From positions 1 through 64,000 of the forward strand of contig JASPKZ010001247.1 of assembly GCA_030220185.1 (NCBI GenBank): a stretch of 64,000 nucleotides of DNA. The letters run 5' to 3'. Shown here one piece after another: positions 13,636 through 58,569 of this stretch. Below the pieces are notes generated by a model. That model did not search any database, was not told the origin of the DNA, and saw only the letters and a program-made list of their open reading frames with translations. Source of the DNA: Diploptera punctata. Taxonomy: Eukaryota > Arthropoda > Insecta > Blattodea > Blaberidae. The position numbers and the translations under genes are program-made. Each line of letters starts with the position of its first letter. Within the stretch, counting starts at the first letter, position 1.

Positions 13636-13792
13636 AATTTAGGAGATTTTAGTGAGGAACAGGGTGAAAGATTTCACCAGGATATAAAAAATATGGAAAT
13701 GAGGTATCAAGGCAAGTGGAATATTAACATAGGCCTAATATCTGACTATTGCTGGGTGTTAAAAAGGGACTGCTCGGAACAACATGCGAGAA

Positions 13793-14020
13793 GATAAGAT
13801 AAGATAAGATAAGATTTATTTAGCCTGGTGGAGTTAAGGCCATGTGGCCTTCTCTTCCACTCACCAGGACAAACATATATTACATAAGAATATAACAATC
13901 TTAAACTTAACGCTAATATTAAACACTAAGTAAAAATTTTGATCAAAAGTAGGTCCCCAAAGAGGAGAAAATGTGAAATAACACTATTGGGGTTAAGGTT
14001 AAAAATTTGTGCTTTTAATA
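13793..14020 (-). mobile_element. LINE family A, 3'-UTR fragment with (ATCTT)n tail
   Basis: On the minus strand this reads hairpin (AAGGCC-ACAT-GGCCTT), CTCCACCAGGCTAAATAAAT, then an ATCTT-type tail that appears on the plus strand as GATAA repeats at 13793-13816. It matches the 3' ends at 32338 and 45300. It is inserted at the end of the pseudogene. Confidence 0.75.
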
Positions 14021-14225
14021 ATAATAAATATAATATAAATAATCATAGTACAAATTATATATAATTTTAATAATAATATTAATACTAATAATTTTAATAA
14101 TAATATTTATTATTATTAAAAATTATTATTATTAAAATTATTATTATTATTATGAATTATTAATTTTATTATAATTATTAGTATTCTTATTATTAATATT
14201 ATTTATATTATTATGAATTAATTAG
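14020..14225. repeat. AAT/ATT-rich low-complexity block with inverted symmetry
   Basis: Runs of AAT units turn into ATT units near 14100, so the block can fold back on itself. Confidence 0.7.
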
Positions 14226-14372
14226 TTAGTAATGAATTAAAATTATTGGCAAATAAATTCCTGGCCTAGTTTCTTCCTTCCAACCACAAAATTTCTTGTC
14301 GAAAGTACGTTCTATTATAACGTTTTCACAAACCTATACTTTCCATAAGACTTGCAGGGAAGGCGTCGTGTA

Positions 14373-14572
14373 GCAAAGCCAGAGGGAAAACGCCCAGTTT
14401 GGTAGACCAAGAATGAGGTGGGAGAATAACATTAACTGTGATTTGAAGGAAGTAGATTATACAGGGAATGATTGGAAAGCATTAGCTCGGGATAGGGATG
14501 TATGGAGAGTTTATGTCCGCGCGGCCATGAACCTATGGGTTCGATAGTGCCAGTGAGTAAGTAAGTAAGTTA
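14373..14572 (+). mobile_element. RTE-like family, 3'-end fragment
   Basis: It matches the last 190 bp of the 6041-8445 copy: the basic KPEGKRPV region, NNINCDLKEVDYTGNDWKALA, and the terminal GTTCGATAGTGCCAGTGAG followed by GTAA repeats. A one-base insertion near 14400 shifts the frame. Confidence 0.85.
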
Positions 14573-14881
14573 TTCATGAATATTTTGAAAACTTGATGTG
14601 ATGGGAGAAAATGGAGACCATTTTCGAATTCAGCATAAAAAATCCGTTTAGAATCACCTATTAGAATAAAAAAGAAACAAAAAAATAAGCTTTAAAATGC
14701 AGAACGGTGTAATATTACAATAATAGCATCTTTGTTGGAAATATTTGCGTTCATTGTAAACAAGTGACTGACGTTAATAGTGTGGGCAATGTTTATTAGT
14801 TGAAACTACAGAAGGCCGTGAGATCAATTAGTGATAAAAATGGCGGCAAGCACGTATTTAGTGTTTTACATTATTTCAAAT

Positions 14882-14998
14882 TGAGGCAGCGTAATCCCGC
14901 CTTCCAGGCATCCCAACCTCACAAGTGGGTTACAAATACGCCAATGCCAGGAGAGAATACCTGAAATGTCGAATGACAAACAGGTGGCATTGAACAAT
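14882..14998 (+). repeat. SINE family S3, 3' part
   Basis: It shares CGCCTTCCAGGC..CC, AGTGGGTTACAA, CCAATGCCAGGAGAGAA and GGCATTGAA with 49735-49840 and, on the other strand, 26650-26750. Confidence 0.7.
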
Positions 14999-15002
14999 AT
15001 GT

Positions 15003-15034
15003 ATGTATATATATATATATATATATATATATAG
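15003..15034. repeat. (TA)n microsatellite
   Basis: It separates two SINE fragments. Confidence 0.9.
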
Positions 15035-15137
15035 TCCACCGCTGTGGTCTCGAGTTAGCGTGCTGCCTTATCACGCAGCGGGCCCGCGTTCGATCCCCGG
15101 TCGGGGCAGTTTTTCTGGGTGAGGTTTTTATCTATAA
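15034..15137 (+). repeat. SINE family S1, 5' (tRNA-like) part
   Basis: It begins GTCCACCGCTGTGGTCTCGAG with a B box GTTCGATCCCC and GGTCGGGGCAGTTTTTCTGG, then breaks off after GAGGTTTTTAT. Full copies are at 27584 and 55966. Confidence 0.8.
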
Positions 15138-15261
15138 ATATATAAAGCAAATAATTCTGGTTGTACATTCACTACCAAGAATGATTTTATCATTAATCAT
15201 TATTTCACAATTCTATGAACATACTGGACATAACAAACTAGTCTACGAGGACAATATCTAA

Positions 15262-55965: not shown

Positions 55966-56290
55966 CCTCCGCTGTGGTCTCGAGGTAGCGTGCTACCTTG
56001 TCACGCAGCGGGCCCGGGTTCGATCCCCGGTCGGGACAGTTTTTCTGGGTGAGGTTTTTATCGCGGTTTTTCCTCATCTGTAAGACAAATGTCAGGAAAA
56101 CTTTAAGGCCCAAACGGTCCCCGAAATCATATGGCCATCACCATCCTTCTCATTATCATCATCATCTTTCACCGGTGTGGAAAGCAACGGAAAGCTACCA
56201 CACCTACAATTCCCTAGTAAAGCTGCAAGCATAGCATGAAAAAATGCTATGATTGCAGTGAACGGCCTGCCTTCGGGCAGAATTACTATG
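55966..56290 (+). repeat. SINE family S1, full copy
   Basis: From TCCTCCGCTGTGGTCTCGAGG to GAATTACTATGGATGGAT. It is followed by (TA)n and another copy. Confidence 0.9.
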
Positions 56291-56306
56291 GATGGATAGG
56301 GAATAT

Positions 56307-56328
56307 TATATATATATATATATATATA
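56307..56328. repeat. (TA)n microsatellite between two S1 copies
   Basis: It joins the 3' end of one copy to the 5' end of the next. Confidence 0.9.
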
Positions 56329-56703
56329 GTCCACCGCTGTGGTCTCGAGGTAGCGTGCTGCCTTGTCACGCAGCGGACCCGGGTTCTATCCCCGGTCGGG
56401 GCAGTTTTTCTGGGTGAGGTTTTTATCGGGGCTTTTCCTCACCTATAAGACAAATGTCAGGAAAACTTTAAGGCCCAAAAGTCCCCGAAATCATATGGCC
56501 ATCATCATCCTTCTCTTTATCATCATCATCATCTTTCACCGGTGTGGAAAGCAACGGAAAGCTACCACACCTACAATTCCCTAGTAAAGCTGCAAGCATG
56601 GCATGAAAAAATGCTATGATTGCAGTGAAGGACCTGCCTTCGGGCAGAAATACTATGGATTGCAGTGAAGGACCTGCCTTCGGGCAGAAATACTATGGAT
56701 GGA
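56327..56703 (+). repeat. SINE family S1, copy with duplicated 3' end
   Basis: The final 40-bp block ATTGCAGTGAAGGACCTGCC..ACTATGGAT occurs twice (about 56619-56658 and 56659-56699). Confidence 0.9.
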
Positions 56704-56719
56704 TATATATATATATATG

Positions 56720-57189
56720 AATGTGTGTGTGTGTGCGTGCGTGTGCGCGCATTTGTGTAGAATAACTGTATTGTATGAGGGATGCTGATAATGAAGAGAA
56801 GAGAGAAGGTGAGACCTGGTGCCGGTTCTATAGCCTACTACTATAGAAAAGAAGCAAAAGGACCCCCAGGCTTAATGTCCCCATCCAAAGGAAGAATCTT
56901 AAAACTCTAGGATACTATAGTTTAGCTTTTATGTTTAGATGTTTCATGTAATTCTTATGAAATTATATGTTATTCACAGTTCTACATGAGTGGAAATTAA
57001 CATCGCCTGTCGTCACACATCAGTGACAATAACTATAAAAAAGGATACACATAAGTAGACCAATCTAAACCAAAGTGTTATAGTAACAATATACAACTTT
57101 TTTATCCCGATGCCGAAAACCCTTACTGTCTTTACGTATTTTGTTCAGACGCTCAGATAAACGATGGATTAGTGTTTTATTACCACGAT
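56720..57189. other. No gene recognised
   Basis: A GT/GC-alternating patch at 56721-56752, otherwise unassigned. Confidence 0.45.
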
Positions 57190-57194
57190 CCATT

Positions 57195-57400
57195 TCATTA
57201 TTATTGACCTCAGTGATCTAAGAATTAAGTACCTTGCTTCTGGTCCTGAGGATTGCGGGTTCAAACTTGGTCTAGATCGCTGTATTTTTATGATGAAAAA
57301 TTCAATCTCTCTGTTCCTGACAGTTGAATTAATCATCAACTCCCAGGACTCGATCTTTATGTTCCCAGACCCTACCGCCAGTCGGTCTTGTGGCTCCAGG
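57195..57400 (+). repeat. Possible SINE family S2 relative
   Basis: GTGATCTAAGAATTAAGTACC..CCTGAGGATTGCGGGTTCAAAC is tRNA-like, followed by TTTTTATGATGAAAAATTC as in S2. Very diverged. Confidence 0.45.
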
Positions 57401-57609
57401 GTAAGAAGCTTAACTTGAAATGGTGGAGATCTCGTGTGGCATATACATCTAGATATGCTCTAACTCTGTCGTCCTCCCACTCTTATTTTTCTTTCACGCA
57501 GGAGCAGAAGTATTTTCTCTGGGACGAGTGAGAATACAAGGGTTCCCACCATAAAAAATGTTAATTATTAAGATACAATTTAATTTTATTTCTCTTTCAG
57601 CAGCAAAAT

Positions 57610-58560
57610 AATATAATATATAAAAACGAATGTTTGTTCGTACTTTATGCGCGGCCATACCGTTGATCCGAATGTGGTGGGGCTTTTTGCAAAATGTTCA
57701 GGAGATTCCCGAAATGAGCATAGGCTATAAATTATGAGAGTTGTGATACTCAACAGCTACACCCTTAAAAATCGCGCTTTCTAGTGGAAAACGTGAAAAA
57801 AGTAGCTCTTTGGACGCTTAAAAGGCTTACACTGCCTAAACCATAAGAGATACACAAAATTAATGTACACATAATTGAATATCTTAAAACGCTCTACAAA
57901 AATGTCCGCTACAGCATATGTTTATCTCTTACGGATAACTCGCAATAACCATTTTTGTCTTTCACTGACGCCAAGAAGATCGAGACAAGCACGTAGATTC
58001 CTGTGCAAGCATAGCAGCACGTGGCGGGTATTCTTTTACGGATAACTTACGATAACGAATTTTGTATTTTACCTCATTTATGCCAAGAAGATCGAGATAA
58101 GTATATTCCCAGGCAACACCGGGTAATCAGCACGGGGAATCTTAAAATAATTACGATATACATTTATAATTATTTTTCATTTTACTCATTCAGCTAATCA
58201 CAAGAAGTATTTAAATTTTCGCCTTTCAGCTCATTTATGCCAAGAAGATCGGGATGAGTAGATTCCCGGACAAGACCGGGTAAACAGCACGGGGTATCTA
58301 AAAATAATTAATACATACAGTTTTCCTTCTACTAATTTAACTAAACATAAAACACATTAATTTTCGCTCATTTATGCCAAAAAAATCGGGATAAGTAATT
58401 CCCGATAAAGGCCGGATAATCAGCATAGGGTATCTAAAAAATATAAATTTATAATTATTTTTTCCTTTTACTTATTCAACTAAACATAAAAACACATTAA
58501 TTTTCATTTATTTAGGCGTAGTAGTGCACGCCGGGTATCAGTAAGTACTATATTATATAA
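57610..58560 (+). mobile_element. Probable non-autonomous Helitron with internal tandem repeats
   Basis: The left part reads ATATATAAAAACGAATGTTTG..CCATACCGTTGATCCGAATG, similar to insect Helitron 5' ends. Downstream are repeated hairpins of the form CCCGG..CCGGG-TA-CAGCA, like Helitron 3' ends. Neither a clear TC start nor a terminal CTAG is secured, so boundaries are uncertain. Confidence 0.4.
57963..58510 (+). repeat. Degenerate tandem repeat, about 140-bp unit, four units
   Basis: GCCAAGAAGATCGAGA / GCCAAGAAGATCGGGA / GCCAAAAAAATCGGGA recurs at about 57970, 58081, 58241 and 58374, each followed by a CCCGG..CCGGG-like hairpin and an AT-rich spacer. Confidence 0.75.
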
Positions 58561-58569
58561 GTAGGCCTA

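What the first reader, a model, noticed from the sequence alone, without database searches (positions are those of the whole stretch)
13730..58569. Palindrome TAGGCCTA is strongly over-represented and behaves as a 6-bp insertion at TA
Exact TAGGCCTA occurs at 13730, 25295, 27021, 28988, 39389, 48054, 48374, 53125, 54886, 54970 and 58562, with TAGGCCCTA at 23289 and 53848. With roughly one-third GC and independent bases I would expect about one or fewer per strand-symmetric 64 kb (my own rough estimate). It is not confined to one repeat family. Where a paralogue exists in the window, the paralogue lacks GGCCTA. TA-GGCC-TA has the form of a target duplication around a 4-base remnant: what an excision footprint of a TA-inserting transposon with GG...CC ends could leave. 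An alternative is a templated micro-insertion: the core can also be read as TTAGG joined to CCTAA, i.e. two insect telomere-type units head to head.
Basis: partly seen in the sequence, partly recalled or inferred. Interest (0 to 1): 0.92.

Follow-up and report, generated by a model that had tools for sequence, protein, structure and literature searches.

The report
Recurrent GGCCTA insertions at TA sites
This large insect-like genome carries very many copies of one small scar, six extra letters (GGCCTA) added at a TA and crowded in certain chromosome regions, most likely left by a jumping element that cut itself out again and again.

Summary
In detail: 11 of 11 TAGGCCTA are in place, chance predicts 0.6-1.0. 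Twenty other 10-kb stretches of this 3.12-Gb genome hold 29 against 2-2.5 expected; GTAGGCCTAC occurs 26,912 times against 635 for the reversed word.

It is an insertion. Paralogues show an exact empty TA at 3 of 8 testable GGCC sites, against 10 of 1,019 other TA-NNNN-TA sites. At three fixed TAs of SINE-like repeats GGCCTA is 18 of 300 listed short inserts, in distinct copies. Doubles number 989, triples 2, so slippage is not the driver.

Late finding: hot regions. Four 10-kb stretches picked where hits crowd hold 74 octamers, 2% of all TAs, about 13 times the sampled density; TAGGCTA rises 9-fold with them, TAGGTA and TACAGTA do not.

Variant junctions and a symmetric G-TA-C target favour excision scars of a TA-inserting element with GG...CC ends. 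No parent is confirmed; two candidate families failed. A domain-limited host process is a live alternative; a telomere origin is disfavoured.

The parts
13730..13737 (.). TAGGCCTA octamer
   Evidence: no paralogue spans it in held DNA
25295..25302 (.). TAGGCCTA octamer
27021..27028 (.). TAGGCCTA octamer, G before and C after
28988..28995 (.). TAGGCCTA octamer inside a stop-to-stop frame on the minus strand (28409-29137); 6 bp keeps a frame
39389..39396 (.). TAGGCCTA octamer
48054..48061 (.). TAGGCCTA octamer, G before and C after
48374..48381 (.). TAGGCCTA octamer
53125..53132 (.). TAGGCCTA octamer shown to be an insertion in a repeat copy: 11 of 12 spanning alignments have the 6-bp gap with at most 2 mismatches around it, 1 has another gap
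54886..54893 (.). TAGGCCTA octamer
54970..54977 (.). TAGGCCTA octamer
58562..58569 (.). TAGGCCTA octamer, G before and C after
23289..23297 (+). TAGGCCCTA, longer variant (G2C3)
   Evidence: empty site not tested
53848..53856 (-). TAGGGCCTA on the minus strand: 7-bp insertion GGGCCTA at TA in an RTE-type LINE copy
   Evidence: alignment against relatives reading TATATTATATGG

Best explanation
TAGGCCTA is a mutation scar. A cut-and-paste transposon that inserts into TA, duplicates TA and has GG...CC ends was excised many times; end joining left about two terminal bases of each end between the two TA copies (TA-GG-CC-TA), sometimes fewer or more. Preference for nearby re-insertion (local hopping) would explain the hot regions. 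Shown: insertion of GGCCTA at an ancestral TA, recurrence at the same nucleotide in distinct repeat copies, scars within scars, co-varying junction variants, symmetric target preference, regional crowding. Inferred: that a transposase makes the break, that GG and CC come from element ends, that the element is of the Tc1/mariner kind, and local hopping. The overhang is open: 4-nt GGCC overhangs would be self-complementary and explain the dominant product; 2-nt GG overhangs with fill-in explain the variants better.
For: Empty paralogues at 3 of 8 GGCC sites vs 10 of 1,019 other TA-NNNN-TA sites, or 3 of 82 when those have at least 3 G/C. GGCCTA in 2, 10 and 6 of 100 listed inserts at three SINE sites (139, 136 and 134 places in all); the 10 copies of one site are at most 88% alike and the 6 of another at most 87%. 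Variants in the 300: GGC 6, GGGC 2, G3C2/G2C3 2, G4C2/G2C4 3, GCC 1, GC 2. In hot stretches TAGGCTA rises with the octamer (41 in 40 kb vs 30 in 264 kb), so it is a product of the same process. Other TA footprints in the same lists: CAG+TA 5, CTG+TA 1 (L077 and L078 are near-duplicates), CTCG+TA 3; a CAGTGC-ended element with TA duplication (L005:2487-2604) and a CGAGGG-ended mariner-like element (L020 about 3053-3826) are present. Target relative to all TA: G at -1 x2.2, C x0.35, A at -3 x1.4 (80 half-sites); -1 repeated in a hot region: A 41, G 21, T 16, C 4 of 82.
Against: No confirmed parent: scans of 276 kb and 20 kb of a hot region gave two candidate families, and copies of both read later do not fit. 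One-sided 2-nt scars (TAGGTA) are not in excess in 264 kb (115 vs 109.7) nor in hot stretches (20 in 40 kb), though GG+TA inserts occur 6 times at the SINE sites. CAG-type scars are not enriched in hot regions (TACAGTA 4 in 40 kb vs 55 in 264 kb). Of the 8 testable octamers, L010:1358 looks like base substitution and the two overlapping L004 ones replace sequence. Thousands of scars per Mb without an intact element in the 40 kb read is a strain on local hopping.
Confidence: 0.5

Rival explanations
1. A host process without a transposon: 2-base staggered breaks at TA, confined to certain chromosome regions, are sealed after a polymerase adds about two G to each 3' end, giving TAGG+CCTA. A TTAGG telomerase that adds GG after TTA is one version.
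For: Hot regions with 2% of TAs filled; GGC, GGGCC and GGGGCC fit a variable number of added G; no parent element confirmed. Telomere repeat AACCT is reported for P. americana, the likely species (PMC12774602, passages).
Against: For the telomerase version: T before the octamer is below expectation (20 of 80 vs 27; 16 of 82 vs about 26) and runs of 4 G are not telomere repeats. For the general version: no enzyme is known to me that does this.
Confidence: 0.22
2. Filler or templated insertion of unknown origin during end joining at TA.
For: The L004 double octamer lies where relatives have about a dozen other bases.
Against: TA duplication, one dominant product and a symmetric target are not expected of filler.
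Confidence: 0.13
3. Spread by copying: the octamer is ancestral in repeat families, or a microsatellite (TAGGCC)n grows by slippage.
For: TAGGCC occurs inside some repeat families; L010:1358 looks like substitution; some filled SINE copies are up to 88% alike, so shared descent of single pairs is not excluded.
Against: At the 3 sites with clean empties the paralogues are mostly empty; filled SINE copies fall in at least two subfamilies; 989 doubles but only 2 triples.
Confidence: 0.04
4. A functional motif kept by selection, such as a binding site in regulatory domains.
For: Perfect palindrome; hot regions.
Against: Present in SINE and LINE copies and in tandem doubles; insertion rather than point gain explains the excess.
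Confidence: 0.03

Closest known systems
Tc1/mariner excision footprints (Sleeping Beauty C(A/T)GTA at TA; 2- or 3-nt overhang plus TA duplication; PMC3878927 and PMC2874221, passages)
   Same: A few bases plus a duplicated TA, one dominant product with junction variants, TA target.
   Different: Core GGCC is 4 bp and self-complementary; no confirmed parent; in 264 kb TAGGCCTA has 40 sites vs 3.5 expected, while TACAGTA is 55 vs 49.6 and TACTCGTA 10 vs 4.5; hot regions.
Minos-type 4-nt footprint with TA duplication (recalled, from no call)
   Same: 4 nt + TA = 6-bp insertion; CTCG+TA inserts of that form occur 3 times at one SINE site.
   Different: Such cores are not self-complementary; GGCC is.
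ISL2EU and PIF/Harbinger (PHIS superfamily; PMC4482050, passages)
   Same: Short AT-rich target duplication.
   Different: ISL2EU target is A|AT|T, Harbinger TWA; here TA is duplicated and G before, C after are preferred.
Telomere repeat (TTAGG)n
   Same: TAGG and CCTA are parts of insect telomere units.
   Different: T before TAGG is depleted, not enriched.

Membership tests
Tc1/mariner-type excision footprint | TA target, duplicated | tested here: met
   Empty TA in paralogues and in SINE copies
Tc1/mariner-type excision footprint | Short core between the TAs with limited junction variation | tested here: met
   Of 300 listed inserts: GGCC 18, GGC 6, GGGC 2, G3C2/G2C3 2, G4C2/G2C4 3, GCC 1, GC 2, GG 6, CC 1, GGTC 1, AGCC 2
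Tc1/mariner-type excision footprint | Core equals terminal bases of an element present in the genome | tested here: inconclusive
   Two candidate families rejected; no whole repeat library available
Tc1/mariner-type excision footprint | Transposase that cuts these ends | not tested
   No transposase search of the whole genome was made
ISL2EU | A|AT|T target, AT duplication | tested here: not met
   TA is the duplicated unit and the base before it is mostly A or G (definition)
PIF/Harbinger | 3-bp TWA duplication | tested here: not met
   Empty sites show a 2-bp TA duplication
Telomerase-type addition (TTAGG) | T before the TAGG of each half | tested here: not met
   20 of 80 vs 27 expected; 16 of 82 vs about 26; the genome-wide TTAGGCCTAA count did not complete
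Microsatellite (TAGGCC)n | Array lengths grow by slippage | tested here: not met
   989 doubles, 2 triples

The most novel reading that the evidence does not exclude
A long-lived host process, not one transposon, acts in particular chromosome regions: it makes 2-base staggered breaks at TA (preferring A-W-G-TA-C-W-T) and seals them after adding about two G to each 3' end, so that TA becomes TAGGCCTA. It is a fixed-sequence 6-bp insertion that fills about 2% of TAs in hot regions and about 0.15% elsewhere, a part of the mutation spectrum not in current models, and a possible record of where germline breaks occur. I have an unchecked recollection that the same octamer is conspicuous in other animal genomes; if so, the process would be old and general.
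Probability: 0.27. Interest if true: 0.9.

Novelty: new variant of a known kind. Interest (0 to 1): 0.72.

Why it matters
If it is a transposon scar, this octamer is a countable record of excision (roughly 0.2-0.6 million events by extrapolation) that shows where and how often an element moved even if the element is no longer visible, and it offers presence/absence markers. If it is not, it is a sequence-specific insertion mutation with regional hot spots. The hot regions make either idea directly testable, because the product spectrum (GGCC with GGC, not GG alone, not CAG) can be read where the signal is strong. Two paper searches for the word or its core (listings) showed no report of it as a repeat or mutation signature in the library searched.

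Tried and rejected
Candidate parent 1: the 83-bp hairpin TA-GGCCTTTCAG...CTGAAAGGCC-TA at L016:8897-8979. A genome search gave 84 match rows on both strands; 20 places were fetched. By eye, conserved sequence continues beyond TAGGCC on at least one side in 20 of 20, so GGCC is inside the inverted repeat. Rejected; an old nested insertion at the TA centre of an outer palindrome would look alike.

Candidate parent 2: L021:2810-2902, TA-GGTAAAATTTGATCACTC...CC-TA, found on re-checking the pairs. A genome search gave 86 match rows on both strands; 18 places were fetched. It is a real element family: one end has differing flanks up to TAGG. But T stands directly before TAGG in 14 of 14 such ends (L085 and L086 are one flank pair seen twice), and the other end continues into conserved sequence. 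Octamers have T there in only 20 of 80, so this family is not the main source.

Other scans: TA-flanked insertions between repeat copies (none with GG...CC ends among 112 listed); TA-anchored inverted repeats with dissimilar outer flanks (3 GG pairs, two in L003, one candidate 1; its flank rule also hid candidate 2); shared starts after TA (mostly inner parts of repeats). One search lists some 38 TAGG...CCTA pairs, of which six were re-read; the rest were not resolved one by one.

Age test: one-mismatch neighbours 84 sites vs 69 expected (65-75 by model order), an excess of 9-19 against about 35-37 for the octamer; a steady state would give about equal excess, but the error is large.

First SINE site has the context A-TA-G and gave 2 GGCCTA of 100 listed.

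Because of the hot regions I lowered the transposon reading from 0.60 to 0.50 and raised the host-process reading and the interest.
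Full report
What was checked. The window is G000:C1244:1-64000 of a 3.12-Gb assembly in 10,165 contigs. Its size, about 34% GC, RTE-type and other reverse-transcriptase frames and the published figures for Periplaneta americana (3.1-3.4 Gb, about 35.5% GC, telomere AACCT, DNA transposons 24.3%, primarily Tc1-Mariner and hAT; PMC12774602, passages) make this cockroach or a near relative likely.

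Observation. In 20 other 10-kb stretches there are 29 against 2-2.5. Among TA-X-TA words with a 4-base X holding G or C, GGCC ranks first in 264 kb: 40 sites against 3.45; longer X are dominated by repeat-family words. GTAGGCCTAC occurs 26,912 times genome-wide against 635 for the reversed control. Extrapolating 40 per 264 kb gives about 473,000 octamers, but the same sample overstates the 10-mer (6 found, about 71,000 extrapolated, 26,912 counted), so I take 0.2-0.6 million.

Insertion, not ancestry. Of 53 octamers in the 276 kb then held, 8 had paralogues spanning the site (two of them the overlapping L004 pair). At 3 of 8 the paralogues mostly show the exact empty TA; the rest are other gaps or substitutions. 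The same test at 1,019 other TA-NNNN-TA sites gave an exact empty site at 10, and at 3 of the 82 with at least three G/C. One of those 10 is TAGGCTTA (L019:8290), one change from the octamer; another, TATCGGTA (L018:709), has 10 empty alignments and is not explained. In the RTE-type LINE two neighbouring TAs are hit in different copies: L016:8441 has CAGT-TAGGCCTA-TATT, and window 53848 has TATAT-TAGGGCCTA-TATGG.

Recurrence. For three fixed TAs of high-copy SINE-like sequence the genome was searched for the two half-sites separated by 3-14 bases. ATCATA|GCATT gave 139 places, CACCTGTA|AGACA 136 and CCTAGTA|AAGCTG 134; 100 of each are listed. GGCCTA is the insert in 2, 10 and 6. The ten of the second site are at most 88% alike over about 380 bases (median 67%), the six of the third at most 87% (median 70%); most are thus separate events, though shared descent of single pairs is not excluded. 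Empty sites number about 118,000-154,000 each by extrapolation from 10-13 copies in 264 kb, so these positions are filled at roughly 0.2-1 x 10^-4 in the listed part, against a mean of about 1.5 x 10^-3 per TA in the 264 kb: young copies carry fewer scars.

Re-insertion. The double TAGGCCTAGGCCTA occurs 989 times (control 4), the triple twice (control 0). A uniform per-TA rate predicts about 480 doubles if the avoidance of C before TA is applied, about 1,360 if not. Rare triples speak against slippage. With hot regions and only 2 triples, the near-equal ratios (0.002 each) should not be pressed.

Hot regions. The list shows 19 GTAGGCCTAC in about 3 Mb of C1, but on C2 3 before 600 kb and 35 between 600 kb and 1.23 Mb, where the list ends. 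Two 10-kb stretches there hold 14 and 27 octamers (L081, L082). Doubles also crowd on some contigs in the list; two stretches chosen by that on C21 and C38 hold 18 and 15 (L083, L084). Together that is 74 in 40 kb, 2.0% of 3,763 TAs, about 13 times the 145 per Mb of the 20 other stretches. The four were picked because hits were known there, so the figure is inflated by a few sites each, not by this much. Elsewhere on the same contigs: C2 2 and 1, C21 0, 1 and 4 per 10 kb. L081 is 58% and L082 15% covered by repeats seen in other held stretches, so plain repeat content does not explain it. In these 40 kb TAGGCTA is 41 (30 in 264 kb), TAGGGCCTA 4, TAGGGGCCTA 2, TAGCTA 14 (38 sites in 264 kb), TAGGTA 20 (115 in 264 kb), TACAGTA 4 (55 in 264 kb), TACTCGTA 0. 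GGC thus belongs to the process; GG alone and CAG do not rise.

Products and controls. In the 300 listed SINE inserts: GGCC 18, GGC 6, GGGC 2, G3C2 or G2C3 2, G4C2 or G2C4 3, GCC 1, GC 2, GG 6, CC 1; GGTC 1 and AGCC 2 look like point changes. The four GGC copies read are at most 76% alike. The same lists hold CAG+TA 5 times and CTG+TA once, the known Sleeping Beauty type (PMC3878927 table, passage), and CTCG+TA 3 times. L077 and L078 (CAG) are near-duplicates; L061-L063 (CAG) are 74-83% alike. The genome holds a CAGTGC-ended element with a clean TA duplication (L005:2487-2604) and a mariner-like element with CGAGGG ends (L020 about 3053-3826; left boundary not resolved to the base). The assay therefore picks up inserts of transposon-footprint form, and GGCCTA has that form.

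Target. Against all TA sites, octamers have G at -1 2.2 times as often, C 0.35 times, A at -3 1.4 times, with AT-rich -2, -5 and -6 (80 half-sites of 40 octamers). The -1 preference is seen again in L081/L082: A 41, G 21, T 16, C 4 of 82, against TA background fractions A .35, G .13, T .32, C .19. The pattern A-W-G-TA-C-W-T is symmetric, as for a dimeric enzyme. GTAGGCCTAC per GTAC is about 0.0038.

Mechanism. The best reading is excision of a TA-inserting element with GG...CC ends, joined by end joining, with local hopping as the cause of hot regions. The weak point is the parent: two candidate families were read and do not fit, and no element stands out in 20 kb of a hot region. A domain-limited host process that adds G to staggered TA breaks explains products and hot regions without a parent but has no known enzyme. 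The telomerase version is disfavoured by the base before TAGG.

Known or new. 'TAGGCCTA' in the full text of the held paper library gives 12 papers (listing); two were opened at the word and use it in an oligonucleotide or primer, the other ten were not opened. A broader search (listing) showed nothing on point. This covers only that open-access library and those words. Footprints are a known kind; this one is new in core, scale, hot regions and missing source.

Noticed in passing
G000:C2 from about 600 kb to beyond 1.23 Mb; L081-L084: Hot regions in which about 2% of all TAs carry the octamer; extent and nature not mapped.
   Followed up: partly
L016:8897-8979; L022 minus strand 6663; L008:6556-6650: Hairpin repeats with inner TAGGCC or TAGGGG...CCTTTC arms; 84 match rows to one of them in the genome.
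   Followed up: partly
L021:2810-2902 and L085-L102: Element family with an end TT-TAGGTAAAATTTGATCACTCACC in differing flanks and variable interior; always T before TAGG in the ends read.
   Followed up: partly
L005:2487-2604: Tc1-like short element, CAGTGCGATCAG ends, clean TA duplication; inserts of CAG+TA form in SINE copies.
   Followed up: partly
L020 about 3053-3826: Mariner-like element of about 0.77 kb with CGAGGGCGGATCGG ends; CTCG+TA inserts of matching form three times at one SINE site.
   Followed up: partly
L018:709: TATCGGTA with an exact 6-bp empty site in 10 of 12 alignments: another TA-bounded 6-bp insertion with a different core.
   Followed up: no
window 43864-44583: Tandem array of about 299-bp units; 4 of the window's 5 tRNA-family hits lie at 43720-44788.
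   Followed up: no
SINE site CTCACCTGTA|AGACAAAT, genome-wide: Inserts of the kind CGCCCA, CTCCCA, CTCTCA, CTCCTA, CGTCCA in 8 of the 100 listed copies, perhaps a subfamily with 6 extra bases.
   Followed up: no
L004:1501-1514: Double octamer in an RTE copy where relatives carry about a dozen other bases: insertion with local loss of sequence.
   Followed up: partly
window 50671-51132: Frame with a DUF4817 helix-turn-helix match, a decayed transposase-like fragment by look.
   Followed up: no
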